Notes under the pieces: generated by a model
Database searches by the model: none
Seen by the model: the letters and a program-made list of their open reading frames with translations, nothing else
What the model was told of the DNA's origin: nothing
Translations under genes and position numbers: made by a program
Origin: Streptomyces rochei
GTDB taxonomy: Bacteria > Actinomycetota > Actinomycetes > Streptomycetales > Streptomycetaceae
Direction: 5' to 3'
DNA: 43,810 nt
NCBI GenBank assembly: GCA_002155895.1
Contig: MUMD01000259.1
Location: 1-43,810 of the forward strand
Shown: one piece after another, positions 12,054 to 41,614 of the stretch
Position numbering within the stretch: position 1 is the first letter of the stretch
Layout: each line of letters opens with the position of its first letter

Positions 12054-12352
12054 CCCTGACGGACGGACCCGCCGACCCGGAAGAGGGGGCGGGCGGCGCG
12101 GGGACGGCGGGGCGGCCGTCCCGCCCAGAACGCCTGTAGCACATCGATGCGTTCGATCGGGGGGATGCGGGAGAAGTTCGCTCCTCGGTGGGGTCTGCGG
12201 CCGCTCCGGCTTACGTACACCGGCCGCTGACTAGCATGAGCCGCAAGTCCGCCGGAGCGATCACCATCGGCTCGGGCGGACGCCACGGCCCGGCGCCGAC
12301 GCGCGCCGACTCGCCCCTTTTCCCCGCTCTCAAGGACCAGAGGGACCGCGGA

Positions 12353-14065: not shown

Positions 14066-14137
14066 CCCGCGCCGGACCGCGCCGCGCACCTCGGCGCCCC
14101 TCGCCCTTCGAGCTCGTGAGATTGGAGGAACGGGCCG

Positions 14138-14596
14138 GTGACCGCAGAACCAGGAACCACCGTCCCCCCACCCACCATGCAGACCACCGACAACAGCCTC
14201 ACCTGGCTCCTGCAGAACCTCCTCGACCGCACCCCCGGCACCCGGCACGCCCTCGTCCTCTCCCGCGACGGCCTCAAACTGTGCTGGACCGAACACCTCA
14301 CCCTGGACCGGGCGGACCAGCTCGCCGCGATCTGCTCCGGCATCCAGGCCCTCGCCCAGGGGGCGTCCGTCGAGTTCGGCAACGGCACGGGCGGCGTCCG
14401 GCACTCCATGACCGAGTTCCACGGAGGGCTGCTGTTCATCGTCGAGGCCGGCGAGGGCGCACACCTGGCCGTCGTCGCGGTGGAGGACGCCGACCCGGGC
14501 GTGGTCGGCCACCAGATGACCGAGATGGTCGAGCAGATCGGCGAGCACCTGCGGGCCGAGCCGCGCCACGCCGCCCCCGGGAGCCGTACGCCGTGA
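14138..14596 (+). CDS. cvnB: Roadblock/LC7-domain protein (CvnB type)
   Basis: A 152-aa protein with a Roadblock/LC7 fold from about residue 18 to 140 (LTWLLQNLLDRTPGTRHALV, LLFIVEAGEGAHLAVVAV). Roadblock proteins dimerise and act as platforms or GTPase-activating partners for small G proteins such as MglA. The GTG start at 14138 follows TTGGAGGAA. Its stop overlaps the next gene's GTG, so it is coupled to the DUF742 gene. Confidence 0.9.
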   Translation: MTAEPGTTVPPPTMQTTDNSLTWLLQNLLDRTPGTRHALVLSRDGLKLCWTEHLTLDRADQLAAICSGIQALAQGASVEFGNGTGGVRHSMTEFHGGLLFIVEAGEGAHLAVVAVEDADPGVVGHQMTEMVEQIGEHLRAEPRHAAPGSRTP

Positions 14597-14949
14597 CCCG
14601 CAGGCCCGTGGACACCGGCGCACCCGACCGGCTCTACACGGTCACCGGCGGGCGCAGCCGTGCCGACGACTCGTTCGACCTCGTCACGCTCGTGGTCAGC
14701 GAATGCGAACCGGCGCCCGGCATGCAGTCGGAACACGTACGCATCCTCGACCTCTGCCGGCACCCGACGGCCGTGGTCGAGGTCGCCGCGGAACTGGCAC
14801 TGCCGATCACCGTGGTCCGCATCCTGCTCGGCGACCTGCTCGCCACCGGCCGGATCACCGCCCGCCATCCGCGCCTGGGGCAGGCCGCCGCGACGCACCC
14901 CGATACCGCCCTTCTCCAGGAGGTGCTCCATGGGCTCCGCAACCTCTGA
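14593..14949 (+). CDS. cvnC: DUF742 protein (CvnC type)
   Basis: A 118-aa DUF742 protein. After a short Arg-rich start, LYTVTGGRSR leads into LVTLVVSE and a winged-helix-like segment (EHVRILDLCRHPTAVVEVAA, LPITVVRILLGDLLATG). It starts with a GTGA overlap on the CvnB stop and its last 20 bases overlap the GTPase gene. In conservons it binds the other Cvn proteins; its own activity is not known. Confidence 0.9.
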   Translation: MTRRPVDTGAPDRLYTVTGGRSRADDSFDLVTLVVSECEPAPGMQSEHVRILDLCRHPTAVVEVAAELALPITVVRILLGDLLATGRITARHPRLGQAAATHPDTALLQEVLHGLRNL

Positions 14950-15565
14950 CCCGCCCTCACCGACCGTCACCGCCTCGGGCCGCACGCCCCTGACCGACGC
15001 CGCGGAGACCGGGCTGAAGATCGTCGTCGTCGGCGGCTTCGGCGTCGGCAAGACCACCCTCGTCCGCTCGGTCAGCGAGATCCGCCCCCTCAACACCGAG
15101 GAGGTGATGACCCAGGCCGGCGTCGGCGTCGACGAGACCGGCGGACTGACGGGCAAGACCACCACCACGGTGGCTTTCGACTTCGGCCGGATCAGCCTCA
15201 ACGAGCGCATGGTGCTCTACCTGTTCGGGGCCCCGGGCCAGGAGCGCTTCTGGTTCCTGTGGGACCGGCTGTTCTCCGGCACCCTCGGCGCCGTCGTCCT
15301 CGTCGACACCCGGAGGATGGACGACTCCTGGTACGCGATAGACCGGCTGGAACACCACCGCACCCCGTTCGTGGTCGCCGTCAACCGCTTCGACGACGAC
15401 CGGGCCCGGCACTCCCTGGACGAGATCCGGCAGGCCCTCGCCCTGCCCGACGACGTACCGCTGATCGACTGCGACGCACGGGTGCGGACCTCGGGCAAGC
15501 ACGTACTGGTCACCCTCGTGGACCACCTCTACCAACTGGCCCTGGCCCAGGAGAGCGCATCGTGA
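14930..15565 (+). CDS. cvnD: Conservon small GTPase (CvnD type)
   Basis: A 211-aa Ras-like GTPase. The P-loop is GGFGVGKTT (35-43), the switch II/G3 region is FGAPGQERF, G4-like is NRFDDD and G5-like is DCDARV. The segment GAVVLVDTRRMDDSW matches MglA/Cvn GTPases. The ATG at 14930 has CAGGAGG seven to eight bases upstream. CvnD would switch with the kinase-like and Roadblock partners and could control the P450 encoded next, whose start overlaps its stop by GTGA. Confidence 0.93.
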   Translation: MGSATSDPPSPTVTASGRTPLTDAAETGLKIVVVGGFGVGKTTLVRSVSEIRPLNTEEVMTQAGVGVDETGGLTGKTTTTVAFDFGRISLNERMVLYLFGAPGQERFWFLWDRLFSGTLGAVVLVDTRRMDDSWYAIDRLEHHRTPFVVAVNRFDDDRARHSLDEIRQALALPDDVPLIDCDARVRTSGKHVLVTLVDHLYQLALAQESAS

Positions 15566-16824
15566 CCGACATCCACCCCGCTCCGGACCACGCCGTCCCG
15601 CCCGCGTGCCCCGCGCACGACAAGGCCGTGGCGCTCGCCGGACTGGAGTACCAGCAGACACCGTCGGAGCTGTACCGCGGTCTGCGGGCCGAGCACGGCG
15701 CCGTGGCCCCGGTGCTCCTGGACGGCTCCATCCCCGCCTGGCTGGTCCTCGGCTACGCCGAGGTCAGCTACGTCACCAGCCACGACGAGCTGTTCGCCCG
15801 GGACTCGCGCCGCTGGAACCAGTGGGACGCCATCCCGCCCGACTGGCCGCTCCTGCCCTACGTCGGCTACCAGCCGTCCGTCCTGTTCACCGAGGGCGAG
15901 GAACACCGGCGGCGGGCCGGCGTCATCTCGCAGGCACTCGCCGGCGTCGACCAGTTCGAACTGGCCCGGGACTGCCGCCAGCTCGCCGATCACCTCATCG
16001 CGTCCTTCGCCGGCAGCGGCCGGGCCGAGCTGATGCGGGACTACGCCCACGCCCTGCCGATGCGTGCCGCCGTGCGCATGTGCGGGATGCCGCACGGCGG
16101 GGACGAGACCCGGCAGCTCGTCGAGGACCTGCGGGTCTCCCTGGACGCGGCGGAGGGCGACGACCCGGTGGCGGCGTACGCGCGGGTGGGCGAGCGCATC
16201 CACCGCCTGGTGCGCCACAAGCGCGAACGGCCCGGACCCGACGTCACCTCCCGGATGCTGACCCACCCGGCGGGGCTCACCGACGAGGAGATCGTCCAGG
16301 ACCTGATCTCGGTCATCGCCGCCGCCCAGCAGCCCACCGCCAACTGGATCGGCAACACCCTCAGACTGCTGCTCACCGACGAACGCTTCGCCCTGAACGT
16401 CTCGGGCGGCCGGCTCAGCGTGGGCGAGGCGCTGAACGAGGTGCTGTGGCTGGACACGCCGACCCAGAACTTCATCGGCCGCTGGGCCGTGAACGACACC
16501 CAGCTCGGCGGCCGGCAGATCCGGGCCGGTGACTGCCTGGTGCTGGGCCTGGCGGCGGCCAACACCGACCCGCAGCTGTGGCCCGAGGCCCACGTCGGCG
16601 CCGAGAACTCCGCGCACCTGTCCTTCAGCAACGGCGAGCACCGGTGCCCCTACCCGGCACCGCTGCTCGCCGACGTCATGGCCCGCACGGCGGTCGAGAC
16701 CCTGCTGGAACGCCTCCCCGACCTGGTGCTCGCGGTGGAGCCGGACGAGCTGACCTGGCGGCCGTCCATCTGGATGCGCGGGCTGACGGCCCTGCCGGCG
16801 CTCTTCACCCCCGTGGTGCCGTGA
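15562..16824 (+). CDS. cvnE: Cytochrome P450 of the CYP157 type, lacking EXXR (CvnE)
   Basis: A 420-aa P450 fold. The haem-thiolate cysteine is C362 in LSFSNGEHRCPYPAP. The K-helix, where almost all P450s have E-x-x-R, reads E293-V-L-W296. The I-helix reads IAAAQQPTANW instead of the A/G-G-x-D/E-T-T motif used for oxygen activation. Loss of EXXR is a published property of the Streptomyces CYP157 family, which also occurs in conservons. It may have unusual catalysis or be regulatory. The GTG start overlaps the CvnD stop. Confidence 0.9.
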   Translation: MTDIHPAPDHAVPPACPAHDKAVALAGLEYQQTPSELYRGLRAEHGAVAPVLLDGSIPAWLVLGYAEVSYVTSHDELFARDSRRWNQWDAIPPDWPLLPYVGYQPSVLFTEGEEHRRRAGVISQALAGVDQFELARDCRQLADHLIASFAGSGRAELMRDYAHALPMRAAVRMCGMPHGGDETRQLVEDLRVSLDAAEGDDPVAAYARVGERIHRLVRHKRERPGPDVTSRMLTHPAGLTDEEIVQDLISVIAAAQQPTANWIGNTLRLLLTDERFALNVSGGRLSVGEALNEVLWLDTPTQNFIGRWAVNDTQLGGRQIRAGDCLVLGLAAANTDPQLWPEAHVGAENSAHLSFSNGEHRCPYPAPLLADVMARTAVETLLERLPDLVLAVEPDELTWRPSIWMRGLTALPALFTPVVP

Positions 16825-27320: not shown

Positions 27321-28046
27321 CTAGGCCCGCGTGTCGAACGCGGCCGTCACCCGCAGCAGTTCGGACACGTCCGAACCGACCGCGATCTCGCGCGGCTGAG
27401 CGCCCCGCCGGAACAGCCGGGCGTCCCGCTCGCCCCCGATCACGGCGCGGTCGCCCTCCACCCGGAGCCAGGAGCCTTCCCGCAGCCCGAGCACGGGCAC
27501 GTCGTTCTCCTCCAGGAACTCCGTCAGCCGCTCCTCACGGGTCTCGCCCTTGTGCGTCGAGGCGGGGTCCGGGTCGAGGTAGTGCGGGTTGATCTGGAAG
27601 GGGACCAGTCCCAGCGCCTCGAAGGACGGAGGCTCGACGATGGGCATGTCGTTGGTGGTGCGCAGCGAGGGCGCCGCCATGTTCGTACCGGCGCTGGCCC
27701 CCATGTAGGGCAGCCCGCCGCCCACCGCCTCGATCAGCGTCTCCCGCAGTCCCGTGCGGTACAGGGCGCTCAGCAGCCGGAAGGAGTTGCCGCCGCCGAC
27801 GAACACCGCGTCCGCCTCACCCAGCCGGGCCGTCGGGTCGCCGCCCTCGTGCACGCCCCGCACCTCGATGCCCGCGCCGGTGAGCGCGCCGCGCACCTTG
27901 GCGGTGTAGGCGTCGTGGTCGGCGAGGGCGTACGGAACGAACGCCAGCCGCGCACCGCGGGGCAGGAAGCCGGTCACGGTGTCGAGGGCGTGTTCCAGGT
28001 AGCCGCGGCCGTACTGGGTGGAGTTGGACAGGAGCAGCAGATTCAC
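27321..28046 (-). CDS. pepE: Peptidase E, S51 family dipeptidase
   Basis: A 241-aa cytoplasmic serine peptidase that cleaves dipeptides with N-terminal aspartate. The nucleophile S118 is in YMGASAGTN. D133 (TTNDMPIV) and H155 (INPHYLD) have the spacing of the PepE triad. VFVGGGNSFRLL is the conserved upstream loop. The start is GTG at 28046 with GAGGA upstream. It lies 44 bases downstream of the IclR gene on the same strand and may be co-transcribed with it. Cyanophycinase is a related family but is usually longer. Confidence 0.88.
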   Translation of the reverse strand: MNLLLLSNSTQYGRGYLEHALDTVTGFLPRGARLAFVPYALADHDAYTAKVRGALTGAGIEVRGVHEGGDPTARLGEADAVFVGGGNSFRLLSALYRTGLRETLIEAVGGGLPYMGASAGTNMAAPSLRTTNDMPIVEPPSFEALGLVPFQINPHYLDPDPASTHKGETREERLTEFLEENDVPVLGLREGSWLRVEGDRAVIGGERDARLFRRGAQPREIAVGSDVSELLRVTAAFDTRA

Positions 28047-28090
28047 GGGGGTGTCCTCGTCGACGGGTCGGATCGGTGACGCGTGGATGG

Positions 28091-28924
28091 TCAGGCGGTA
28101 CGGGGGGAGCGCGGGCGGCGCTGGTGCTGCGGCGGGTGCGTCAGGCGCCGCTCCAGCAGCCGGGCGGCACGGCGCAGCACCTCCAGGCGGTCCTCGGGCC
28201 CCTCGGGGAAGCGCTCCTTGGCGGCACCGAGGCTGAGGCTGCCGTACGGCTCGGAGCCGAGGAACACGGGCACGGCGACCGTGCCGATGCCGGCGTCGTA
28301 CTCGCCGACGGTCCAGGCGTAGCCCTGGGCGCGCACCCGGCGGAACTCCTGCTCCAGCTGGTCGGGGTCGGTCACCGTGCGCTCGGTGAAGCGCGCCATG
28401 GGACGGCCGCGGAAGAGCCGGTGGCGCTGGTCGTCGGGCAGGAAGGCGTAGTACGACTTGCTCGTGGCGCCCGCGTGCGCCGGGTACAGCTCGCCGACCA
28501 GCGGGTAGTAGCGCAGCGGCCCCTCCTCTCCCTCGACGGCAGCCACACAGCGCATGTGGAAGCTGTCGGGCAGGCAGAACAGGACGGTGTCGCCGGTCGC
28601 CGCGCGCAGGTCCTGGAGGACCGGCTCGGCGAGCAGTTCCAGCGAGCCCGAGCGCTCCCAGAGCCGGCCCAGGCGCAGGGCGGCCGGGCCGATGCGGTAG
28701 CGGCGCGTCGCCGGGTCGGAGACCAGGAAGCCGCGGCCCGCGAGCGTGGACAGCAGCCGCTGGGCGACCGAGGTGTCCCAGCCGAACTCGCCGGCGATCT
28801 CCGTCACGCCCCAGTCGGGCCGGCTGCGCTCGAAGGCCAGCAGCACCAGCAGCGCCCGGTCGACGGTCTGCAGGGCCCCGGCCGGCGTCTTGCGGTCCGA
28901 GGGCTGGACGGGCCGATCGGCCAT
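28091..28924 (-). CDS. IclR-family transcriptional regulator
   Basis: A 277-aa regulator. The N-terminal winged helix (about 17-80: ALLVLLAFERSRPDWGVTEI, SVAQRLLSTLAGRGFLV) binds DNA. The C-terminal ligand domain (about 95-260) includes the motifs AHAGATSKSYYAFL and VGEYDAGIGTVAVPVF. The ATG at 28924 follows GAGGAG. It is divergent from the DUF1177-permease-M20 operon, its likely target. The ligand is unknown, presumably the nutrient taken up by that permease. Confidence 0.88.
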   Translation of the reverse strand: MADRPVQPSDRKTPAGALQTVDRALLVLLAFERSRPDWGVTEIAGEFGWDTSVAQRLLSTLAGRGFLVSDPATRRYRIGPAALRLGRLWERSGSLELLAEPVLQDLRAATGDTVLFCLPDSFHMRCVAAVEGEEGPLRYYPLVGELYPAHAGATSKSYYAFLPDDQRHRLFRGRPMARFTERTVTDPDQLEQEFRRVRAQGYAWTVGEYDAGIGTVAVPVFLGSEPYGSLSLGAAKERFPEGPEDRLEVLRRAARLLERRLTHPPQHQRRPRSPRTA

Positions 28925-28981
28925 GGGGGCTCTCCTCGTCGTGCGGTCACGGATGCGGTCGCCGTCCCGCGCATCTCACGA

Positions 28982-29000
28982 TGCAGACCTGAATTGCAGA
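28982..29000. promoter_or_regulatory. Direct repeat in the IclR / DUF1177 divergent promoter
   Basis: TGCAGA occurs at 28982-28987 and 28995-29000, 13 bases apart, in the only AT-richer patch of this 159-base gap. GGAAAC and AACGTT follow within 35 bases. These are candidate regulator contacts, but no clean IclR palindrome was found. Confidence 0.3.
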
Positions 29001-29083
29001 TAGTGGGAAACAGTTGCGGAGAACGTTAATCGATCCGGAACCTGCTGTCAGCACCGCCCAGGTGCGGATCAGGAGAACCGCCC

Positions 29084-30037
29084 ATGTTGAAGTACGTCCT
29101 GGACCTCGTGGATCTGCTGGACGATCCCGACGTCGACGGCAAGCGCGTCGCCGCCCACCTCGACTCCGTGGCCGGACCCGAGGGCTCCGGCGCCGAGGTC
29201 ACCACCGTCACCGGCGAGCGCGGCTCGACGGACTTCGTGCTCGTCCGCGTCCCGGGCCGCAGCGGGCGTACCGCCGGCGGTACGGCCCGCACGCTCGGAG
29301 TGGTCGGACGCCTCGGCGGCATCGGGGCCCGTCCGGAGATGACCGGTCTGGTCTCCGACGCCGACGGAGCCGTCGCCGCGCTCGCCACCGCCGCCAAGCT
29401 GCTGGACATGCGCCGGCGCGGGGACGTGCTCGACGGTGACGTGATCGTCGCCACCCACATCTGCCCGGACGCCCCGACCGCGCCGCACGACCCGGTGCCC
29501 TTCATGGACTCGCCGGTCGACATCGCGACCATGAACCGGCACGAGGTCACCGGCGAGATGGAGGCCGTGCTCTCGATCGACACCACCAAGGGCAACCGGA
29601 TCATCAACCACAAGGGCCTCGCCCTGTCGCCCACCGTCAAGGAGGGCTGGGTGCTCAAGGTGAGCGAGTCGCTGGGGGAGCTGCTGGCGGTGGTGACCGG
29701 TGAGCCGTTGGTCACGTACCCGGTGACCACCCAGGACATCACCCCGTACGGTAACGGTGTACACCACATCAATTCGATCCTGCAGCCGGCCACGGCGACG
29801 GCCGCCCCGGTCGTCGGCCTCGCGATCACCTCCGCCGCGGCGGTGCCCGGCTGCCAGACGGGCGCCAGCCACGAGACCGACATCGCGGCGGCGGCCCGGT
29901 TCGCCGTCGAGACCGCCAAGGCCTACGGCGGCGGACGCCTCGACTTCCACGACGACCAGGAGTTCGACGCGCTCGTGTCCCGCTACGGCTCCCTGACCCA
30001 CCTGCAGACCTTCGGCCGCGAACCCCGGGAGTCGTGA
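29084..30037 (+). CDS. DUF1177 family protein
   Basis: A 317-aa cytoplasmic protein covering the whole DUF1177 family. Recognisable blocks are RTLGVVGRLGGIGARPEMTG, VIVATHICPDAPTAPHDPVP and VLSIDTTKGNRIINHKG, and the tail GCQTGASHETDIAAAARF. The conserved His, Asp and Cys residues suggest a metal-dependent or small-molecule enzyme, but no reaction is assigned. AGGAGAAC precedes the ATG at 29084. It is first in an operon with an NCS1-type permease and an M20 hydrolase, which points to uptake and hydrolysis of a nitrogen-containing compound. Confidence 0.8.
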   Translation: MLKYVLDLVDLLDDPDVDGKRVAAHLDSVAGPEGSGAEVTTVTGERGSTDFVLVRVPGRSGRTAGGTARTLGVVGRLGGIGARPEMTGLVSDADGAVAALATAAKLLDMRRRGDVLDGDVIVATHICPDAPTAPHDPVPFMDSPVDIATMNRHEVTGEMEAVLSIDTTKGNRIINHKGLALSPTVKEGWVLKVSESLGELLAVVTGEPLVTYPVTTQDITPYGNGVHHINSILQPATATAAPVVGLAITSAAAVPGCQTGASHETDIAAAARFAVETAKAYGGGRLDFHDDQEFDALVSRYGSLTHLQTFGREPRES

Positions 30038-30039
30038 TC

Positions 30040-31437
30040 ATGGCCGCGAACGACAGCACCGCCCCCGAGGCGGGCGGCACCAAGGCCGTGGGCAGCGACG
30101 ACTACGCCCTCTCCCGGGTCCCGCGCGACAAGCGGCTCGGCTTCTGGACGATGCTGCTCCAGTGGCTCGCGCAGTCCGGCTCCATCTCGCAGTTCACCCT
30201 GGGCGCCACCATCGGCGTCGGCATGTCCTTCGGCGACGCCTTCCTCGCCTTCACCCTCGGCGCGGTGATCCTCGAAGTCGTGATCTTCGCGATCGGCCTG
30301 GCCGGCATGCGCGAGGGCCTGGCGACCCCGCTGCTCACCCGCTGGGCCGGCTTCGGCCGCAACGGCTCCGCGCTGGTCAGCCTGGTCATCTCGGTCAGCC
30401 TCGTCGGCTGGTTCGGCGTACAGAACACGATCTTCGGCGACAGCGTGTCCGCGCTCGTCGGCGGCCCCTCCTGGCTGTGGTGCACGGCCGCCGGCCTCGC
30501 CATCACCGTCCTGGTGATCTTCGGCTTCCGGTACATGGCGGTCTTCGCGAAGATCGTGACACCGCTGTTCTTCGCGATGGTCGCCTGGTCGGTCACCGAC
30601 GCGCTGAGCGACCACTCGCTCACCGAGCTGATCAACTCCCCGGCCCCCGGCGAGACCATCCCCCTCGCCGTCGCCGCGACCGCCATCGCGGGCGGCTTCA
30701 TGACCGGTGCGATCGTCTCGCCGGAGATGACCCGCTACAACCGCAAGGGCAGCCACGTCTTCCTGCAGAGCGCCTCGTCGATGATCCTGTCCGAGTACAT
30801 CGTCGGCATGACCGGCGTCCTCCTCGGCCACATGGTCGGCAGCGGCCAGGTCTCCCAGATCGTGCTCTCCACCTCCGGCGTCTTCGGCGTGCTCGTCGTC
30901 CTGATGTCCACCGCGAAGATCAACGACTGGAACCTCTACGGCTCCTCGCTGGGCGTCGTCAACTTCTTCCAGGTCGTCTTCAAGAAGCGCGTGCACCGCG
31001 GCGCGGTCACCATCGTGCTGGGCATCGCCGGCACCCTGCTGTCCGCCGTCGGCATGATGACCCACTTCACCGACTTCCTGTCGGTGCTGGGCGTCGCCAT
31101 CCCGCCGGTGGGCGGCATCATCGTCGCCGAGTACTGGGTGGTCCGCCGCATGCGCGCACCCCTGGACGCCACCCGCGAGTCCGGGACCCTGCCGGCCACC
31201 TCGCCGACCTGGGTGCCGATGTCCCTGGTCATCTGGGCCGCCGCCTTCTGCGTCGGCAAGTTCTACGACGGCGGCATCCCCGCCCTGAACTCCCTGCTGA
31301 CCGCGTTCGTCCTGTACAGCGTCCTCGGCCTGGCCGGCTGGATCAGGACGTACGGCACCACCACCCTCGACGATGACGACGAAGCCGCCGACCGCACCCC
31401 GGCGGCGTCCGGCACCGCCCCCGTAGGAGCACCGTGA
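30040..31437 (+). CDS. NCS1/cytosine permease-type transporter
   Basis: A 465-aa inner-membrane permease with about 12 helices, resembling CodB and other purine/cytosine permeases. LLQWLAQSGSISQFTLGATI is the first-helix region, GWFGVQNTIFG the helix 3 motif, and GGFMTGAIVSPEMTRY the conserved helix 6 segment. The family imports nucleobases, hydantoins or allantoin by cation symport. The ATG at 30040 is preferred over GTG 30034 because GGGAG is then eight bases away. The acidic tail overlaps the M20 gene by four bases. Confidence 0.85.
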   Translation: MAANDSTAPEAGGTKAVGSDDYALSRVPRDKRLGFWTMLLQWLAQSGSISQFTLGATIGVGMSFGDAFLAFTLGAVILEVVIFAIGLAGMREGLATPLLTRWAGFGRNGSALVSLVISVSLVGWFGVQNTIFGDSVSALVGGPSWLWCTAAGLAITVLVIFGFRYMAVFAKIVTPLFFAMVAWSVTDALSDHSLTELINSPAPGETIPLAVAATAIAGGFMTGAIVSPEMTRYNRKGSHVFLQSASSMILSEYIVGMTGVLLGHMVGSGQVSQIVLSTSGVFGVLVVLMSTAKINDWNLYGSSLGVVNFFQVVFKKRVHRGAVTIVLGIAGTLLSAVGMMTHFTDFLSVLGVAIPPVGGIIVAEYWVVRRMRAPLDATRESGTLPATSPTWVPMSLVIWAAAFCVGKFYDGGIPALNSLLTAFVLYSVLGLAGWIRTYGTTTLDDDDEAADRTPAASGTAPVGAP

Positions 31438-32771
31438 GCACCAGCCCCGTCCCTGTCCCTGTCCCCGTCCCCGCCTCGGAGGAGGCGCAGCGCGAGGTCG
31501 TCGACCTGTGCGCGGAGCTGATCCGCTTCGACACCTCCAACCCCACCAGCGACGAGCGCGCCTGCGCCGACTGGGTCGTGGCCCGGCTCGCCGAGGTGGG
31601 CATCGCCTGGGAACTGGTGGAGAGCGCCCCGGGCCGCGCCAACGTCATCGCCCGCATCCCCGGCGCCGACCCGGCGCGCGGCGCCCTGCTGGTGCACGGC
31701 CACCTGGACGTCGTGCCGGCGGACCCCGCCGAATGGCAGGTGCCGCCGTTCTCCGGCGAGATCCGCGACGGCTACCTGTGGGGGCGCGGCGCCATCGACA
31801 TGAAGGACACGGTGGCCGTCATGCTGGCCACCGCCCGGCATTTCGCCCGCACCGGCACCCGGCCGGCCCGGGAGATCCTCCTCGCCTTCCTCGCCGACGA
31901 GGAGGCCGGCGGCAGGTTCGGCGCCCACTGGCTGGTCGAGCACCGGCCCGAGCTGTTCGCCGGGGTCACCGAGGCGATCGGCGAGGGCGGCGGCTTCAGC
32001 TACGCCCTGGACGACACCCGGCGCCTCTACCCGATCGAGAACGCCCAGCGCGGCATGGCGTGGATGGAGCTGACGGCGTCCGGCCGGGCCGGGCACGGCT
32101 CCTCCCCGAACGACGAGAACGCCGTCACCGACCTCGCCGAATCGCTCACCCGCATCGGCCGGCACACCTTCCCGGTCCGCCTCATCGAACCGGTGCGCGC
32201 CCTGCTCACCGAGGCCGCCCGTCTCCAGGGCGTCGCCCTCGACCTGGACGCCGACGACCTGGACGCCGAACTGGCCAAGCTCGGCCATGTCGCCGACTTC
32301 ATGCAGGTCGTGCTGCGCAACTCGGCCAACCCCACCATGTTCACGGCCGGCTACCAGACCAACGTCATCCCGGGCCGGGCCACCGCCCGCGTCGACGGCC
32401 GTTTCCTGCCCGGCCACGAACAGGAGCTGATCGACACCATCGACGCCCTGCTCCTGCCCTCGGTCTCCCGTGAGTGGGTCAACCACGACATCGCCATGGA
32501 GACCACCTTCGACGGCCCCCTCGTCGACGCCATGTGCGCGGCCGTGCGCGCCGAGGACCCCGACGGCCACCCGGTGCCGTACTGCAACCCGGGCGGTACC
32601 GACGCGAAGGCGTTCACCGAGCTGGACATCCGCTGCTTCGGCTTCAAGGGCCTCAAGCTCCCGCACGACCTCGACTACGGCCGCCTCTTCCACGGCGTCG
32701 ACGAACGGGTGCCGCTGGAGGGCCTGCGCTTCGGCGTGCGGGTGATGACCCGGCTGTGGCAGGAGTGCTGA
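31434..32771 (+). CDS. M20-family metallohydrolase (peptidase/deacylase)
   Basis: A 445-aa zinc hydrolase. Metal-site blocks are [11 protein letters not shown] (His-x-Asp), GRGAIDMKD (bridging Asp), LADEEAGG (catalytic Glu plus ligand) and the final His in [14 protein letters not shown]. The dimerisation domain spans about 195-320 ([15 protein letters not shown]). Substrates in this family include N-acyl amino acids, dipeptides and carbamoyl amino acids. The GTG at 31434 overlaps the permease stop. An N-terminal PVPVPVPVP run comes from a DNA hexamer repeat. With DUF1177 and the permease it forms a catabolic operon of unknown substrate. Confidence 0.87.
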
Positions 32772-32874: not shown

Positions 32875-33039
32875 ATGGCACGCAGCACCGCACGCCCGGT
32901 CGTCAGACTGAAGTCGACCGCCGGGACCGGCGTCACCTACGTCACCCGCAAGAACCGCCTCAACGACCCCGACCGGCTCGTCCTGCGCAAGTACGACCCG
33001 GTGGCGGGCGAGCACGTCCCGTTCCGCGAGGAACGCTGA
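32875..33039 (+). CDS. rpmG: Ribosomal protein bL33, zinc-free paralogue
   Basis: A 54-aa large-subunit protein. [19 protein letters not shown] and [18 protein letters not shown] are diagnostic of bL33. It has no cysteines, so it is the C-minus form that does not need zinc. In S. coelicolor such paralogues replace the zinc form under zinc limitation and are controlled by Zur. No Zur-box palindrome is visible in the 103 bases upstream, so control may differ. GGAAGGAG precedes the ATG. It stands alone between the M20 gene and a terminator. Confidence 0.95.
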
Positions 33040-33054
33040 CCCACCTCCGCACCA

Positions 33055-33089
33055 CGGCCCGGCCCCGCCCGCCCAGGGGGGCCGGGCCG
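33055..33089. terminator. Strong 12-bp hairpin after rpmG
   Basis: CGGCCCGGCCCC (33055-33066) pairs perfectly with GGGGCCGGGCCG (33078-33089) across an 11-base loop, starting 15 bases after the rpmG stop. Confidence 0.8.
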
Positions 33090-33234
33090 CGCCGCGTCCG
33101 CGCCCGGTCATCCGGCGACGTCCACGCCGTATCCCCGGGCCAGGGCCTCCAGGCCGTGGCAGTCACCCTTCGCCGATCACCTCCTGGGAGACTGTCGGGC
33201 GTGTCACCCGCCAGGCATTCAGGAGGACTTCGTC

Positions 33235-34311
33235 ATGACCGAGCAGCCGCGCGACCGCGTCGCCCGGTACGGGCGCCGTTTCGACCGGGTCTTCGCCGAG
33301 TACTTCGACGGCCTCGAGAAGACGCTGGAGGCTCCGGCGTTCAGCCGCTACACCCCGGACTGTCTGGCGTTGCTCCGTGACCTGTCCCTGCGGGGAGGCA
33401 AGCGGATGCGGGTCGTCCTGGTGCACGAGGCCGCGCGCCTGGTGCGTGACGACGCGCCGGCCGAGGCGCTGGACGCCGCCGCGCTGAGTGTCGAGCTGCT
33501 GCAGACGCACGGTCTCGTGCACGACGACCTCATCGACGACAGCGCCACCCGCAGGGGCGGGCCCACCACCTACCGCGCCTACCTCGACCGGTTCCCCGGC
33601 CACCCGCGGGCCGCGCTCGGGCTCACCGTCCTCGCCGGCGACCTGGCGCTCGCCCTCTCGCTGCGGGTGCTCCTGGACGCCGAGCTGCCGGTCGAGCTGC
33701 GGCAGGCGTTGACCGAGGTCCAGGTCCGGGCCGCGGCCGACACCTTCGTCGGCCAGATCACCGACCTGGAGCGGGACTTCGCCCCCGGCACACCCGACGA
33801 GGAGGTCCTCCACGACGTCGCCGACCACAAGTCGGCCCGCTATTCGGTCCTCGCGCCGCTGCGCCTCGGGCTCCTCGCGGCCGGTGGACAACCGGGCCTC
33901 CACGACGCGGAACTGCGGCGCTACGCACGGCTGGTGGGCATCTGTGGCCAGATGCGCGACGACTACCTCGACCTGTTCGGCGACGCCGCCGCGATGGGCA
34001 AACCGACGGGCGCAGACATCCGCGAGGGACGACGCAGTTACACGGTCGCCCGTCTGCTGTCCACCGTGAGCGGCTCCGAGCGGGCACTTCTGGAGCGGGC
34101 TCTGGGAGACCGGGACTGCACCGAGGAGACCGTCGCCGCGATCCGTGAGATCGGCGAGCGCCACGGCGTGCCCGCCCAGTTGCGGGCGGACATGAGTCGC
34201 TGCGCCGAGCAGGCCGCGGAGGTGGCGGCCGCTTGGCGCCCGCGGTGGCGCGAGGAAGCGGTCGCGTTCTTCGAGCGACTGCCCCGGTGGAGTGTCGACC
34301 GGGACGGATGA
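33235..34311 (+). CDS. Polyprenyl diphosphate synthase (first copy)
   Basis: A 358-aa trans-isoprenyl diphosphate synthase that would condense IPP with an allylic diphosphate. LSLRGGKRMR (51-60) binds diphosphate. The first aspartate motif is D97-D-L-I-D101 in GLVHDDLIDD and the second is D242-D-Y-L-D246 in GQMRDDYLDLFGD, and the intervening GDLALAL and Lys-containing DHKSARY match the family. Chain length cannot be read safely. AGGAGGA precedes the ATG. A 211-base gap separates it from the next gene, so it may be a separate transcript in the same module. Confidence 0.9.
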   Translation: MTEQPRDRVARYGRRFDRVFAEYFDGLEKTLEAPAFSRYTPDCLALLRDLSLRGGKRMRVVLVHEAARLVRDDAPAEALDAAALSVELLQTHGLVHDDLIDDSATRRGGPTTYRAYLDRFPGHPRAALGLTVLAGDLALALSLRVLLDAELPVELRQALTEVQVRAAADTFVGQITDLERDFAPGTPDEEVLHDVADHKSARYSVLAPLRLGLLAAGGQPGLHDAELRRYARLVGICGQMRDDYLDLFGDAAAMGKPTGADIREGRRSYTVARLLSTVSGSERALLERALGDRDCTEETVAAIREIGERHGVPAQLRADMSRCAEQAAEVAAAWRPRWREEAVAFFERLPRWSVDRDG

Positions 34312-34469
34312 CCGTACCCGCCCCCCGGGGCCTCCCGGCAGCCGCGGCGACGCGCCTCCGCGTCGGTCGCCGCGCGCGGGGGTGCCGGGCCGTCCGACGC
34401 CTGTTCCCCCTGTCGCTCAAAGGGGAATACCGGATCTTCCGCCCCGGGAGCCGGGTCATGCTCGGACCT

Positions 34470-34493
34470 GATGCGCCGCTGACCAGGCGCATC
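34470..34493. promoter_or_regulatory. Perfect inverted repeat before the prenyl operon
   Basis: GATGCGCC (34470-34477) and GGCGCATC (34486-34493) are exact inverse repeats with an 8-base spacer, ending about 20 bases before the ribosome site at 34511-34520. It could be an operator, an mRNA hairpin near the ribosome site, or the terminator of the upstream synthase gene 160 bases earlier. Confidence 0.5.
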
Positions 34494-34522
34494 GGTCACG
34501 ACACGACCCCTGGGGGAGAGGC

Positions 34523-34807
34523 ATGACGCACTCGGCGAGACGGGGCGACGGTCCGGACGACCAGGCCGTACTGCTGGCGGCCGGACTCGCGGACCTGGCG
34601 GTGAGCACCCTCGGCACGGCGGTCGGCGCGGTGCGCGGACTGCTGCGCCGCTCGGACACCGCCGACCTGGTCCGGGAAGCAGAACAGGATCTCCGGGCCC
34701 GGGGCAGACTGGCCCTGGACCGGTACGCGAACGTGCCGCCGGCCCACCTGGAGGTGCTCGCGCGGCAGGCGCGGGCGCGAAGGGCGGCCGACGCCGGCGA
34801 TGACTGA
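34523..34807 (+). CDS. Small helical protein coupled to the second polyprenyl synthase
   Basis: A 94-aa protein I do not recognise. It is predicted almost entirely helical (AVLLAAGLADLAVSTLGTAV, DLVREAEQDLRARGRLALD, LEVLARQARARRA), with an amphipathic or weakly hydrophobic stretch at residues 14-40 that could touch a membrane or a partner. TGGGGGAGAGG precedes the ATG. Its stop lies inside the start of the second synthase gene (8-base overlap), so the two are made together. A small regulatory or membrane-adaptor subunit of the synthase is a reasonable inference. Confidence 0.65.
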   Translation: MTHSARRGDGPDDQAVLLAAGLADLAVSTLGTAVGAVRGLLRRSDTADLVREAEQDLRARGRLALDRYANVPPAHLEVLARQARARRAADAGDD

Positions 34808-35858
34808 CCGCTGGAACCCGGCCGCCTTCAAGGCGCGCGTCGACGCCGTACTGCACGCCTTCCTCGACGAGGAGTCCCGGCACCTGCTGGCCGTCGACGG
34901 CACCCTGGCACCCGTCGCCGAGCAGCTCCGCACCGCGGCCGGGCACGGCAAACGGCTGCGCGCGGCCTTCTGCTACTGGGGCTGGCGGGCGGCCGGACAA
35001 CCCGACAGCGACGCCCTGGTGCGGGCCGCCGCGTCGATGGAGCTGGTGCACGCGGCGGCGGTCGTCCACGACGACCTCATCGACGACAGCGCACTGCGCC
35101 ACGGCCTGCCCACCGTCCACGAGGCGCTGGCGTCCGTGCTGGCCCGGGGCGGCCATCCACGGGCGCGGCCGGCCGCCCGGTCGCTGGCCATGCTGGTGGG
35201 CGATCAGCTGATGGCCCTGGCGGCGGAGCTGTTCGCCGCCAGCGGCCTGCCCGCCGCCTACCTCTCCCGGGCCCGGCACCTGTGGGCCGCCCTCGCCCGC
35301 GAACTCCTGGCCGGGGAGTGCCTGGAAATCCTGCACACCGGCGGACCACCGGACACCGGGACCTCACTGAAGGTGGTCCGGTACAAGACCGCCAAGTACA
35401 CCGTCGAACACCCCCTGCTCATCGGCGGCCTGCTGGCCGGCGCCGGCCAGGGACTGCGGGACGCCTACTCCGCGTACGGTCTGCCCCTCGGCGAGGCGTT
35501 CCAGCTCCGCGACGACCTGCTCGGCCTCTTCGGCGATCCGGAGCACACCGGCAAGGAGGGCCTGGACGACGTGCGCGCCCAACGCCCCACCGCGCTGCTG
35601 GCCGAGACCTGGCGGGCGGCCGACGACCGGCAGCGCGCACGGCTGCGCGGCGTGCTGGGCCGCGGCGACCTGGACGAGGGGCACCTGCGCGAGGTACGCG
35701 CGCTCATGCGGGAACTGGGCGCGCCGCAGCGCGTCGAGCGGATGATCCACACCCGCGTGGAACAGGCCACCCGCGCCCTGGACACCGCCGGCGTACCGCC
35801 GCACGGGCGCCGGGCGCTGCGTGACCTCGCCCGGCAGGCCACCGACCGCATCCACTGA
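34800..35858 (+). CDS. Polyprenyl diphosphate synthase (second copy)
   Basis: A 352-aa trans-isoprenyl diphosphate synthase. GHGKRLRAAF is the diphosphate loop. The first aspartate motif is D91-D-L-I-D95 (VVHDDLIDD) and the second is D238-D-L-L-G (FQLRDDLLGLFGD). Lys-Thr-Ala-Lys in VRYKTAKYT is the family KTA site. It is divergent from the synthase at 33235, with both active sites complete, so the two are not an obvious catalytic/non-catalytic pair. It is co-transcribed with the small protein before it and the Lcp-like oxygenase 13 bases after it. The product length is unknown. Confidence 0.9.
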   Translation: MTDRWNPAAFKARVDAVLHAFLDEESRHLLAVDGTLAPVAEQLRTAAGHGKRLRAAFCYWGWRAAGQPDSDALVRAAASMELVHAAAVVHDDLIDDSALRHGLPTVHEALASVLARGGHPRARPAARSLAMLVGDQLMALAAELFAASGLPAAYLSRARHLWAALARELLAGECLEILHTGGPPDTGTSLKVVRYKTAKYTVEHPLLIGGLLAGAGQGLRDAYSAYGLPLGEAFQLRDDLLGLFGDPEHTGKEGLDDVRAQRPTALLAETWRAADDRQRARLRGVLGRGDLDEGHLREVRALMRELGAPQRVERMIHTRVEQATRALDTAGVPPHGRRALRDLARQATDRIH

Positions 35859-35871
35859 CGAGGAGACCGCG

Positions 35872-37032
35872 ATGACCCACACCGAGACGTCGATGAACGC
35901 CCTGCGCCACAGCGGCGACGAACTGGCCGACGCCGTCGTCGCCACCCTGTTCGAGCGCGGCGAGGTCGGCAAGTTCAACTCCCTGATGCGCTACGTCTCC
36001 ACCGCCGGCCAGGAACTCCCCGACGGTCTGCCCGGGGTGGCCCGCGAGTACCTGCGGGCCACCGGCACCCCGCCGGACTGGGTGGACTGGTCCGAGATGG
36101 AGAAGGCCCGCCTCTTCTTCATCGACAACAACGTGCACATCTCCACCGCGCTGTCGTTCGCCTCCATGCCCGCCTGCTACGTCGTCCCGCACGTGGCCAG
36201 GCTGCTCTCGGCCACCCACGGGCTGAGCTATCCCTCCAAACGCATGGCGGAGACCGGCCAGTTCACCGTCTACCTCATGCAGCCCGACGCCTTCGAGGCC
36301 GGCGGCCGCTTCATCCCGGCGGCCCAGAAGGTGCGTCTGCTGCACGCCGCCATCCGCCACCACCTGAAGCGGGAGGACCGCTGGGACACCGAGGCCCTCG
36401 GCACGCCCATCTGCCAGGAGGACATGATCGGCGGGCAGATGTTCTTCTCCTTGCTCGTCCTGGACAGCCTGCACCGCCTGGGCATCCACATGTCACAGGA
36501 AGGGGCGGAGGCCTACTACTACGCCTGGCGCGTGGTCGGTGCCGTCCTCGGCGTCGACCAGACGGCCGTCCCCACCACGCTCGACGGGGCGCGGCAGTTC
36601 CTCGACCTGTACATGCTGCGCCACATGGGCCCCTCGCCGGAGGGCGCGCACCTGACCCGGCAGCTGATCGACCTCTACGAGGAGGTCGTCCCCGGCACCC
36701 TCTTCGACCCGGTGGTCTCCGCGCTGATCCGCTACCTCGTCGGCGACACCTGCGCCGACTGGCTGGAGGTCCCCCGCACCCGCTGGGACACCGTCGTCAA
36801 GGCCGCTCCGCACCTCCTCGGCGTCCTGGAGACGATCGAGGACCGCTCACCCTTCGGAGCCTGGGCGCTGGACCGGCTGGGCCACCTCACCACGGCCCTG
36901 GAACTGTCCACCCTGACCCGGGGGCGCGTCATGCACTACGCGATCCCCGAACAGCTGAAGAAGGACTACGGCGTGACGGGCGCCGCCTCCCGCACCCGTC
37001 GCTGGACCCCGCCGCCCGCCACCGTGTCCTGA
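35872..37032 (+). CDS. Lcp/MpaB-like haem oxygenase (DUF2236)
   Basis: A 386-aa protein of the oxygenase MpaB / DUF2236 family, which includes latex-clearing protein Lcp, a b-type haem dioxygenase that cleaves polyisoprene double bonds. R124, T128 and H158 (SKRMAETGQF, KVRLLHAAIRHHL) keep the exact spacing of LcpK30 R164, T168 and the haem ligand H198; the LcpK30 K167 position is E127 here. PICQEDMIGGQMFFS is the next conserved block. Unlike Lcp it has no signal peptide, so it works inside the cell. GACGAGGAGAC precedes the ATG. Its partner genes make polyprenyl diphosphates, a plausible substrate source; that link is inference. Confidence 0.8.
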   Translation: MTHTETSMNALRHSGDELADAVVATLFERGEVGKFNSLMRYVSTAGQELPDGLPGVAREYLRATGTPPDWVDWSEMEKARLFFIDNNVHISTALSFASMPACYVVPHVARLLSATHGLSYPSKRMAETGQFTVYLMQPDAFEAGGRFIPAAQKVRLLHAAIRHHLKREDRWDTEALGTPICQEDMIGGQMFFSLLVLDSLHRLGIHMSQEGAEAYYYAWRVVGAVLGVDQTAVPTTLDGARQFLDLYMLRHMGPSPEGAHLTRQLIDLYEEVVPGTLFDPVVSALIRYLVGDTCADWLEVPRTRWDTVVKAAPHLLGVLETIEDRSPFGAWALDRLGHLTTALELSTLTRGRVMHYAIPEQLKKDYGVTGAASRTRRWTPPPATVS

Positions 37033-37055
37033 ACGTCCCGAACCACCGCGCGGCG

Positions 37056-37478
37056 TCAGGCGATGGACGCCGATATGACCGCCGACACGGCGAGGTTGCA
37101 GGACGCCGTGACCCACACCGCCGGGTGCGGCTCCGGCTCCACCAACGTGGCGCCCAGCCGTCCCGGCGTGATCAGGTCGACCACCCAGAACGCGATCGCC
37201 ATCATGACGAGGCCCAGCAGCCCGAAGGCCGCGGTCGACACCAGGCCCTTGCCGAAGTCCTCGTACGTCGTCCAGATCGAGGTGAAGACGATGCCGCCGA
37301 TGCCGAGCAGCGCGGAGCTGAGCACCATGGCCGCGTTGCGGTTGCGCTGCTCCCAGATCTGCCGGCCGAGCTTTCCGGGCGTCAGCACGTCGACCAGGAC
37401 GATGCCGAGGACCAGGAGGACCAGGCCGAGACCGCCGTAGGCGGTGGCGCGGCCGAGTCCGTTGACGATGTCGCTCAT
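37056..37478 (-). CDS. DUF350 membrane protein
   Basis: A 140-aa integral membrane protein made of two similar halves. Four helices are apparent (LGLVLLVLGIVLVDVLTPG, AMVLSSALLGIGGIVFTSI, LLGLVMMAIAFWVVDLITPG, and a C-terminal one). The paired VDVLTPGKLG and VDLITPGRLG motifs are the DUF350 (YjfL-like) repeats. The function is unknown. It is convergent with the oxygenase gene, separated by 23 bases, and lies 142 bases downstream of the DUF475 gene on the same strand. Confidence 0.85.
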   Translation of the reverse strand: MSDIVNGLGRATAYGGLGLVLLVLGIVLVDVLTPGKLGRQIWEQRNRNAAMVLSSALLGIGGIVFTSIWTTYEDFGKGLVSTAAFGLLGLVMMAIAFWVVDLITPGRLGATLVEPEPHPAVWVTASCNLAVSAVISASIA

Positions 37479-38920: not shown

Positions 38921-39367
38921 ATGACCGCATCCCGGGACCCGGCCGTCGCCGCGGAACTGCGCGGAGCCGGCCTGCGGGTGACCGCGGCCCGGGCCGCGCT
39001 GCTCGACACCGTCCGACGGGGCGATCACCTCGACGCCGAGGCGATCGCCGACGGGGTGCGCCGGCGCGTGGGTCACATATCCCTCCAGGCCGTGTACGAG
39101 GCGCTGCACGCCCTCACCGCGGCCGGGCTCGTGCGCCGCATCCAGCCGCCCGGCGGCCCGGCGCGGTTCGAGGGACGGGTGGGCGACAACCACCACCACG
39201 TGCTGTGCCGGTCCTGCGGCGCCCTCGCCGACGTCGACTGCGCCGTCGGCGAGGCGCCCTGCCTGACCGCCTCCGACGACCACGGCTTCTCGATAGACGA
39301 GGCCGAGGTCATCTACCGGGGCCTGTGCCCCGACTGCTCCACCTCCGGCAGTTCCACCGCACCTTGA
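38921..39367 (+). CDS. furA: FurA-family redox-sensing repressor
   Basis: A 148-aa Fur-family repressor of the downstream catalase-peroxidase. The winged helix spans about 12-80 (LRVTAARAALLDTV, ISLQAVYEALHALTAAGLVR). The metal and dimerisation domain carries HHHVLCRSCG with C96 and C99, and C136-x-x-C139, the structural zinc site. In S. coelicolor and S. reticuli the homologue represses its own operon in the reduced metal-bound form and is released by thiol oxidation. It precedes katG by 24 bases and has no proper ribosome site, in line with a leaderless message. Confidence 0.95.
   Translation: MTASRDPAVAAELRGAGLRVTAARAALLDTVRRGDHLDAEAIADGVRRRVGHISLQAVYEALHALTAAGLVRRIQPPGGPARFEGRVGDNHHHVLCRSCGALADVDCAVGEAPCLTASDDHGFSIDEAEVIYRGLCPDCSTSGSSTAP

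Positions 39368-41614
<2,247 letters not shown>

What the first reader, a model, noticed from the sequence alone, without database searches (positions are those of the whole stretch)
33235..37032. Two polyprenyl synthases, a 94-aa helical protein and a cytoplasmic Lcp-like oxygenase, with no terpene cyclase
The second synthase overlaps the small-protein gene by 8 bases and the oxygenase follows 13 bases later. The oxygenase keeps the R-x3-T and His spacing of the rubber-cleaving Lcp haem site (R124/T128/H158) but lacks a signal peptide, so it would act on an internal polyprenoid. No cyclase, UbiA or glycosyltransferase is present. A pathway that makes an all-trans polyprenyl chain and then oxidatively cleaves it to apo-type products would be new to me.
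Basis: partly seen in the sequence, partly recalled or inferred. Interest (0 to 1): 0.85.

Follow-up and report, generated by a model that had tools for sequence, protein, structure and literature searches.

The report
Conserved prenyl-synthase plus haem-oxygenase gene trio
Many Streptomyces and some related soil bacteria share a tightly kept set of three genes that probably builds an isoprenoid chain and then cuts or oxidises it with a haem enzyme, with no ring-forming enzyme beside it; I found no published description of the set and its product is unknown.

Summary
In detail: all four ORFs are at the stated places, with the 8-base overlap, the 13-base gap and the R124/T128/H158 triad.

The unit is really a trio: 94-aa protein, second synthase, oxygenase (34523-37032). 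The first synthase goes with it only in close relatives (11 of 80 loci). All three genes lie on one strand in 97 of 98 Streptomyces places from an even draw (97 of 295 genomes, the window's own included) and in all 8 loci outside the genus with a near oxygenase (2 families, 5 genera); the exception is a contig end. No other gene nearby is shared by more than 11 of 80 loci. The 94-aa gene overlaps the synthase gene in 185 of 188 loci.

"Lcp-like" needs correcting. R/T/H is common to DUF2236 proteins (40 of 44 others). The trio oxygenases lack both Lcp marks (K167, E148; 0 of 163), form their own clade and show no signal peptide.

Best reading: a small-subunit/prenyl-synthase pair feeds a cytosolic haem oxygenase that cleaves or oxidises the prenyl product. 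Linkage and purifying selection are shown; haem, substrate, chain length and cleavage are inferred. Ten searches of an open-access library listed no paper on the trio.

The parts
34523..34807 (+). 94-aa helical protein, first gene of the conserved trio; proposed small subunit or product carrier of the prenyl synthase
   Evidence: ORF. No Pfam match for the window protein, no PDB-sequence match at E 1 for a 51-sequence profile, only scattered weak Pfam matches of single members (best E 0.029). Present in 80 of 80 genome-contig loci, 97 of 98 genus-sample places, 11 of 11 class-sample trio loci. R60, G61, E77, A80 in 167 of 167 distinct sequences. AF2: helices 11-41, 46-69, 74-92, pLDDT 70.6, pTM 0.30. 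dN/dS 0.27-0.36 in 5 comparisons.
34800..35858 (+). trans-prenyl diphosphate synthase, second gene of the trio
   Evidence: PF00348, 136 bits. D91, D92, D95 (first motif) and D238, D239, G242 (second motif) in 165 of 165; Ala at -5 and -4 of the first motif in 165 of 165; the usual RRG is R-H in 154 of 165. Nearest PDB sequences 3lk5 (GGPP synthase) and 8f8f (FPP synthase). Overlaps the small gene in 185 of 188 loci. dN/dS 0.29-0.37.
35872..37032 (+). cytosolic DUF2236/MPAB-type haem oxygenase, third gene of the trio
   Evidence: PF09995, 61 bits; LcpK30 E 2e-33 by sequence and 8e-10 by fold, t-anethole oxygenase 0.015. R124, T128, R155, H158, R162 in 163 of 163; position 127 is E/A/N, 108 hydrophobic or Gly. 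C-terminal T349, R350, R352 in 163 and G351 in 162 of 163. dN/dS 0.16-0.19.
33235..34311 (+). second prenyl synthase upstream; accessory of the window's clade, not part of the conserved trio
   Evidence: PF00348, 153 bits. At 75-90% identity in 11 of 80 trio loci (L006-L015, L032). dN/dS 0.24-0.30 in 4 comparisons.
34413..34462 (+). degenerate counterpart of a conserved upstream element of the trio (other Streptomyces: TCACYCGNNSGTGAGTT at about -107, with ATGCT 45 bases after its first base)
   Evidence: The intact site stands upstream of the small gene in 60 of 145 distinct loci, 0.0 expected in shuffles, but TCAC-N6-GTGA is in 0 of 10 of the window's own close relatives; in the window the best match has 2 mismatches to TCAC-N6-GTGA at -110 and ATGCT sits at the same offset.

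Best explanation
The trio is a self-contained, probably single-transcript isoprenoid pathway. (1) The 352-aa protein makes an all-trans prenyl diphosphate from IPP and an allylic primer. (2) The 94-aa protein, made by coupled translation, is its partner: a small subunit or carrier that shields the growing or finished hydrophobic chain. (3) The 386-aa cytosolic haem-b protein of the DUF2236/MPAB superfamily takes that product, or the alcohol made from it, and oxidises or cleaves a C=C bond, giving an aldehyde, ketone or acid of the apo-prenoid type, perhaps volatile. No cyclase is needed. Shown: conserved three-gene linkage, the overlap, purifying selection, intact synthase motifs, the oxygenase fold and haem triad. 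Inferred: haem binding, complex formation, chain length, substrate and cleavage.
For: Three genes on one strand in 97 of 98 genus-sample places, 78 of 80 genome-contig loci and 11 of 11 class-sample trio loci, the misses being contig ends (the sets share some strains). Outside the trio no ORF cluster is shared by more than 11 of 80 loci (60 largest clusters viewed) or by more than 5 of 36 diverse loci. The overlap of gene 1 and gene 2 is kept in 185 of 188 loci, whereas the gap from gene 2 to gene 3 ranges from 11 to 211 bases in 123 loci. Gene 1 and gene 2 distances correlate best of the three pairs (r 0.90 against 0.84 for genes 2-3 and 0.89 for genes 1-3; in the core set 0.81, 0.66, 0.72). 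dN/dS 0.16-0.37 for all genes. Motif residues, K51/R54 and the invariant Ala pair in the synthase. Haem triad invariant and fold match to LcpK30 (strong) and t-anethole oxygenase (weak, E 0.015). MpaB, of the same Pfam family by name, cleaves a farnesyl side chain (passage in PMC12724181). An upstream element that occurs only before the trio in 3 of 6 trio-bearing genomes searched.
Against: The oxygenase has neither Lcp's Glu148 (LcpK30 variants keep 2-20% activity, passage of PMC5522427) nor K167, so its chemistry may differ from rubber cleavage. Its nearest outgroups of the superfamily (L160, L161, L162, L181, L182 and others, 13 loci) have no match to the trio synthase or small-protein profile within about 6 kb, nor do 24 further DUF2236 loci within about 1.5 kb (some are the same places with shorter flanks). 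The synthase's nearest solved relatives are named C15/C20 enzymes, and the second Arg of its RRG motif is His in 154 of 165. The AF2 model of the 94-aa protein has no confident tertiary fold, and its profile matches no PDB chain, small subunits included. The upstream element is missing in the window's clade and in 3 of 6 trio-bearing genomes at 0 mismatches. No haem, complex or product was tested.
Confidence: 0.45

Rival explanations
1. The synthase has become a terpene synthase (IDS-like cyclase or rearranging enzyme), and the oxygenase tailors the terpene it releases. The trio would then be a minimal terpene cluster whose cyclase looks like a prenyl synthase.
For: The second Arg of the RRG motif, next to the IPP site (recalled from FPP synthase structures), is His in 154 of 165 trio synthases, while three solved relatives aligned here have RRG. 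No other gene is conserved near the trio.
Against: Other recalled IPP-side residues stay invariant or nearly so (K51 164 of 165, R54 and H84 165 of 165), and 11 of 165 keep Arg; the second motif (DD-x-x-G) is also that of the C15 and C20 synthases 8f8f and 3lk5.
Confidence: 0.15
2. The synthase and small protein make a short-chain donor (C15-C25), and the oxygenase acts on a non-prenyl partner or on a lipid prenylated elsewhere, so the three are co-expressed but not consecutive.
For: Other DUF2236 proteins with an R-x-x-E-T motif (19 of 44 rows) stand without a trio synthase or small-protein match nearby; t-anethole oxygenase, a weak fold match, is named for a phenylpropene.
Against: 97 of 98 co-occurrence with no fourth conserved gene favours a direct hand-over from synthase to oxygenase.
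Confidence: 0.2
3. The oxygenase is a true Lcp-type rubber oxygenase that has lost secretion and recycles internal polyprenoids.
For: R/T/H and the residues of the D56-R195 and D60-R202 salt bridges are kept (D16, D20, R155, R162 in 163 of 163); best fold match is LcpK30.
Against: E148 and K167 absent in all 163 and a separate clade at 100/100, with a long branch to the Lcp-type clade; a conserved C-terminal stretch beyond the part aligned with Lcp by phmmer.
Confidence: 0.1
4. The 94-aa protein is a lipid-coating or membrane-anchoring helix protein that holds the two enzymes at a membrane or lipid body, not a synthase subunit (compatible with the main reading of the two enzymes).
For: Helix 1 (11-41) is hydrophobic, mean Eisenberg value 0.38; the AF2 model is three helices without a confident packing.
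Against: Helix 1 is not clearly more amphipathic than its shuffles (fraction 0.12 reach it); the fixed overlap with the synthase gene alone points to the synthase as its partner.
Confidence: 0.25

Closest known systems
Latex clearing protein LcpK30 (5o1l/5o1m)
   Same: Superfamily, fold, R164/T168/H198 and salt-bridge residues
   Different: No signal peptide seen, no E148, no K167, separate clade, extra C-terminal conserved stretch, fixed prenyl-synthase partner
MpaB/MpaB' of mycophenolic acid biosynthesis and bacterial MpaB-family oxygenases (t-anethole oxygenase 8s1j; Nro1 of Gordonia)
   Same: DUF2236/MPAB enzymes; MpaB cleaves a C=C of a farnesyl chain and Nro1 is thought to cleave one of nitrile rubber (passages of PMC12724181); weak fold match to 8s1j
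   Different: I saw no description of those with a prenyl synthase plus 94-aa protein; Nro1 keeps a Lys at the K167 position, the trio does not
Actinobacterial short-chain synthases (3lk5 named GGPP synthase; 8f8f named FPP synthase; NCBIfam NF042416)
   Same: Overall sequence, first motif, DD-x-x-G second motif
   Different: Below the NCBIfam cut-off (207 against 600 bits); Ala-Ala before the first motif instead of Cys-Ala (3lk5) or Trp-Ala (8f8f); R-H instead of RRG in 154 of 165
Two-component long-chain prenyl synthases (hexaprenyl 3aqb, heptaprenyl 9kp1)
   Same: A small protein beside a catalytic synthase of the same Pfam family (nature of the small subunits recalled; catalytic chains listed)
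   Different: No sequence similarity of the 94-aa profile to any PDB chain at E 1
Family 2 encapsulin cargo prenyl transferase (NF041169)
   Same: Second-best NCBIfam match of the synthase, 194 bits
   Different: Far below the cut-off of 450; no long N-terminal extension; no encapsulin among the 28 scanned window proteins

Membership tests
Lcp (latex clearing protein) | DUF2236 domain with R164, T168, H198 | tested here: met
   PF09995 61 bits; R124/T128/H158 in 163 of 163. Not specific to Lcp: 40 of 44 other DUF2236 rows have it too
Lcp (latex clearing protein) | Distal haem ligand K167 | tested here: not met
   E 146, A 9, N 8 of 163. Lys is itself only 59% conserved among 495 homologues (passage of PMC5522427)
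Lcp (latex clearing protein) | Catalytic base E148 | tested here: not met
   V 153, I 4, L 2, M 2, A 1, G 1 of 163; E148 together with K167 in 22 of 44 other DUF2236 rows, 19 of 38 when identical rows are merged
Lcp (latex clearing protein) | Tat signal peptide and secretion | tested here: not met
   No twin arginine or hydrophobic N terminus by eye; no predictor was run
Lcp (latex clearing protein) | Falls in the clade of E148/K167 proteins | tested here: not met
   17 trio rows form one clade, 100/100, apart from that clade; LcpK30 itself was not in the tree
Lcp (latex clearing protein) | Cleaves polyisoprene, binds haem b | not testable with these tools
   Needs purified protein
Polyprenyl synthetase PF00348 | Pfam cut-off and both Asp-rich motifs | tested here: met
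   136 bits, cut-off 27; D91, D92, D95, D238, D239 in 165 of 165; the second motif ends in Gly242, as in 3lk5 and 8f8f
Long-chain (over C20) prenyl synthase | Small residues at -5/-4 of the first motif | tested here: met
   Ala-Ala in 165 of 165; the rule itself is recalled, so this permits but does not prove a long product
Two-component prenyl synthase small subunit | Sequence similarity to a known small subunit | tested here: not met
   No PDB chain at E 1 with the 51-sequence profile; in Pfam only weak hits of 1-2 of 51 members, best E 0.029, none a synthase
Two-component prenyl synthase small subunit | Physical complex with the catalytic subunit | not testable with these tools
   Only overlap (185 of 188) and co-divergence support it
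Terpene cyclase cluster | A terpene cyclase in the unit | tested here: not met
   None among 28 scanned window proteins of about 40 likely genes; no fourth conserved gene

The most novel reading that the evidence does not exclude
A cyclase-free isoprenoid pathway in which a two-component synthase (94-aa protein plus catalytic subunit) makes a linear polyprenyl chain and hands it to a dedicated cytosolic DUF2236 haem dioxygenase of a new subclass without Lcp's Lys and Glu, which cleaves it into apo-polyprenoids, possibly volatile signals, in about a third of Streptomyces species and in other actinobacterial families.
Probability: 0.33. Interest if true: 0.82.

Novelty: new variant of a known kind. 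Interest (0 to 1): 0.62.

Why it matters
If true, it would be a three-gene isoprenoid pathway that works by chain cleavage instead of cyclisation, spread over about a third of the sampled Streptomyces genomes (97 of 295) and also found on linear plasmids of 0.5 to 1.1 Mb (three examined). It would give the poorly understood DUF2236 superfamily a biosynthetic subclass with a genetically fixed substrate supplier, which makes the substrate question directly testable by co-expression. It would also put a function on an orphan 94-aa family whose members are labelled 'polyprenyl synthetase' in two plasmid records although the window's copy shows no similarity to that family.

Tried and rejected
BldM regulation of the upstream element: the site looked like TCAC...GTGA, but the published BldM Group I consensus has 8 bases between the half-sites (PMC4125116, passages) and ours has 6, so I dropped it. 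A BldD-like box (pattern recalled) was not enriched (1 of 145, 2.9 expected).

Conserved P450 beside the trio: a cluster in 5 of 36 diverse loci (named P450 by eye), but not adjacent and not at a fixed place; dropped.

Encapsulin cargo: NCBIfam score far below cut-off and no long N-terminal extension; dropped.

Natural fusions of gene 1 with 2 or of 2 with 3: none in the 192 loci checked.

Fold search of the 94-aa model: not run, as pTM 0.30 would make matches meaningless. The AF2 model of the oxygenase is weak (pLDDT 60.8, below 50 over most of 87-134 where the haem triad begins), so I used it for overall fold only, not for site geometry.

Volatile literature: a search for geranylacetone/farnesylacetone with Streptomyces gave no title or abstract start that bears on the trio; listing only.

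Sigma-70 promoters and terminators in 33000-37300: no promoter; 2 terminator-like sites (0.5 expected), both on the other strand inside the oxygenase gene.

Rows dropped before counts: proteins matching under 60, 300 or 340 profile positions were left out (1, 3 and 4 rows); identical sequences were counted once. In one search upstream regions identical over 150 bases were merged (159 to 145). The 44 control rows include loci fetched twice (38 distinct); the four other DUF2236 genes of the own genome did not match the trio profile and are not among them.

Corrected on checking: the element is unique to the trio in 3 of 6, not 3 of 5, trio-bearing genomes; the middle residues of the synthase motifs vary a little.
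Full report
WHAT IS THERE. The four ORFs are as described. The oxygenase is best started at the ATG of 35872, 13 bases after the second synthase's stop; the longer GTG frame at 35821 overlaps the synthase. Both synthases pass Pfam PF00348, the oxygenase passes PF09995, the 94-aa protein matches nothing. The own genome holds five PF00348 genes besides the two here if the two matches on contig C374 are one gene, and four other DUF2236 genes.

THE UNIT IS A TRIO. A scan of genome contigs with the second synthase kept the best 80 of 448 relatives: 79 Streptomyces or Kitasatospora-named records (one of them a plasmid, L065) and one Nocardia (L063). The 94-aa protein is beside the synthase in 80 of 80 and the oxygenase in 78 of 80; the two misses (L058, L067) end less than 200 bases after the synthase. 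The first synthase is present at 75-90% identity in only 11 of 80. Because that scan started from the synthase and kept the best, I repeated the test from the oxygenase: 97 of 295 Streptomyces genomes drawn evenly (the window's own included) have it at E 1e-100 or better, in 98 places, and I fetched the surroundings of all 98. 97 of 98 have all three genes on one strand; the exception (L248) starts 239 bases from a contig end. This includes a divergent group of 8 loci where the oxygenase is 62-64%, the synthase 47-55% and the small protein, where tblastn finds it, 36-42% identical to the window's; in two of these (L158, L159) the small protein was missed by tblastn and found by the profile.

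OUTSIDE THE GENUS. In 394 genomes of the class, 27 match an oxygenase profile at 1e-30. All 8 outsiders and the 3 of the genus that I newly fetched carry the trio. Thirteen lower-scoring loci (at most about 320 bits) have no match to either partner's profile within about 6 kb, and 24 lower-scoring loci (L092-L115) held with about 1.5 kb on each side have no tblastn match to them (a few are the same places). So a sharp gap separates the trio oxygenases from the rest of the superfamily. In the tree 17 trio rows form one clade at 100/100, with L181 as sister at 97/93; some outgroup branches are long and their places unsure.

NO FOURTH GENE. Clustering ORFs of the 80 loci (45% identity, 60% length; 60 largest clusters viewed) shows no cluster outside the trio and its overlapping frames in more than 11 loci; the clusters of that size are synthase 1 and the downstream flank of the window's close relatives. 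In 36 diverse loci the largest outside cluster has 5 loci. The window's own neighbours do not look like a pathway with it: S51 peptidase, IclR, DUF1177, permease, M20 peptidase and L33 on one side; DUF350, DUF475/TerC, FUR and peroxidase on the other. On two linear plasmids with annotation the trio stands among varied genes, next to an oleate hydratase in one of them; six Streptomyces plasmid records matched the oxygenase at 1e-30, five of them at 75% or more, and the three that I fetched have the trio.

THE 94-AA PROTEIN AND THE OVERLAP. Start of the synthase minus end of the small gene is -8 in 123, -11 in 54, -4 in 4, -17 in 3, -26 in 1, +49 in 1 and undetermined in 2 of 188 loci (the sets share some strains, and the start is the codon nearest the profile's start). 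The next gap varies from 11 to 211 bases in 123 loci. A fixed overlap with one partner only suggests coupled translation of two interacting proteins; inference. R60, G61, E77 and A80 are invariant in 167 distinct sequences. The AF2 model is three helices with no reliable packing. Distances of the small protein and the synthase correlate best, r 0.90, but all pairs are high because the genes are inherited together.

THE SYNTHASE. The residues for chain elongation are there: D91, D92, D95, D238, D239, R54 in 165 of 165 and K51 in 164, and A86-A87 before the first motif in 165 of 165. In aligned relatives the -5 residue is Cys (3lk5, named C20) or Trp (8f8f, named C15); Ala there would permit a longer product (rule recalled). 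The second Arg of RRG is His in 154 of 165, an unexplained family mark.

THE OXYGENASE. R124, T128, H158 and R155, R162, D16 and D20 (salt-bridge residues of LcpK30) are invariant in 163. In LcpK30 R164 and H198 are essential and T168 nearly so (passage of PMC6311187). But position 167 is Glu, Ala or Asn and 148 is never Glu in the trio, while 22 of 44 other DUF2236 rows have Glu148 with Lys167 and 19 have R-x-x-E-T; merged to 38 distinct rows these are 19 and 16. So by active site it stands with the non-Lcp, R-x-x-E-T part of the superfamily, and by tree between that part and the Lcp-type clade. Fold: LcpK30 E 8e-10, t-anethole oxygenase E 0.015, from a model of modest confidence.

SELECTION AND REGULATION. 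dN/dS is 0.16-0.37 in five comparisons of the trio and four of synthase 1. Upstream of the small gene, 70 of 145 distinct loci have TCAC-N6-GTGA (0.3 expected in shuffles) and 60 the longer TCACYCGNNSGTGAGTT (0.0 expected), mostly at -101 to -113. Searched in 8 whole genomes, the longer site occurs once each in G107, G193 and G449, each time just before the trio, once in a genome without the trio (G171), and not at all in the other four, three of which have the trio (G000, G128, G538); the reversed control pattern never occurs. The window's clade (0 of 10), the non-Streptomyces loci (0 of 9) and the divergent Streptomyces group (0 of 10) lack TCAC-N6-GTGA there.

LITERATURE. Ten searches of the open-access library listed no paper whose title or abstract start describes the trio; 'DUF2236' with 'polyprenyl synthetase' and 'Streptomyces', and 'oxygenase MpaB family protein' with 'polyprenyl synthetase', gave no paper at all. 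I read passages of five papers (PMC5522427, PMC6311187, PMC9108482, PMC12724181, PMC4125116) and none whole; most subscription papers are not held. The paper on bacterial haem C=C-cleaving oxygenases (Purwani 2024) could not be read and is known to me only through its citation in PMC12724181; that 8s1j belongs to it is my recall.

VERDICT. A real, strongly conserved and apparently undescribed gene trio whose enzymes are of known kinds. Its wiring points to synthesis and oxidation of an isoprenoid with no cyclase; the exact chemistry is open.

Noticed in passing
window 12188-16824: ORFs with HATPase, Roadblock/LC7 and (weakly) cytochrome P450 matches in a row, like a Streptomyces conservon (name recalled).
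   Followed up: no
window 38921-41614: A FUR-family regulator followed by a peroxidase gene (PF00141, 740 aa), like the known fur-catalase/peroxidase pairs (recalled).
   Followed up: no
window 27321-32771: S51 peptidase, IclR, DUF1177, cytosine/purine-type permease and M20 peptidase genes next to each other; single genes of the set recur in 5 to 8 of 80 trio loci, flanks being cut in some.
   Followed up: partly
upstream of the trio, about -107; e.g. G107:C18:14551-14567, G193:C1:7551407-7551423, G449:C3:7063338-7063354: A 17-base element TCACYCGNNSGTGAGTT, found once in each of these genomes, before the trio; its binding protein is unknown.
   Followed up: partly
L250 (G171:C1:4871934): The same 17-base element once in a genome without the trio, between genes that I did not identify.
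   Followed up: no
L193 4538-4822, L194 4615-4899: Public annotation calls the 94-aa protein 'polyprenyl synthetase', although the window's copy has no similarity to that family.
   Followed up: partly
L030, L166, L167: The oxygenase match is split over two pieces in these loci (frameshift or assembly error).
   Followed up: no
L098/L112, L111, L184, L188, L189: Pairs of Lcp-type (E148/K167) genes close together, with no trio partner in the stretch held.
   Followed up: no
L154 and L155 (genome G632): One Streptomyces genome carries both the main and the divergent version of the trio.
   Followed up: partly
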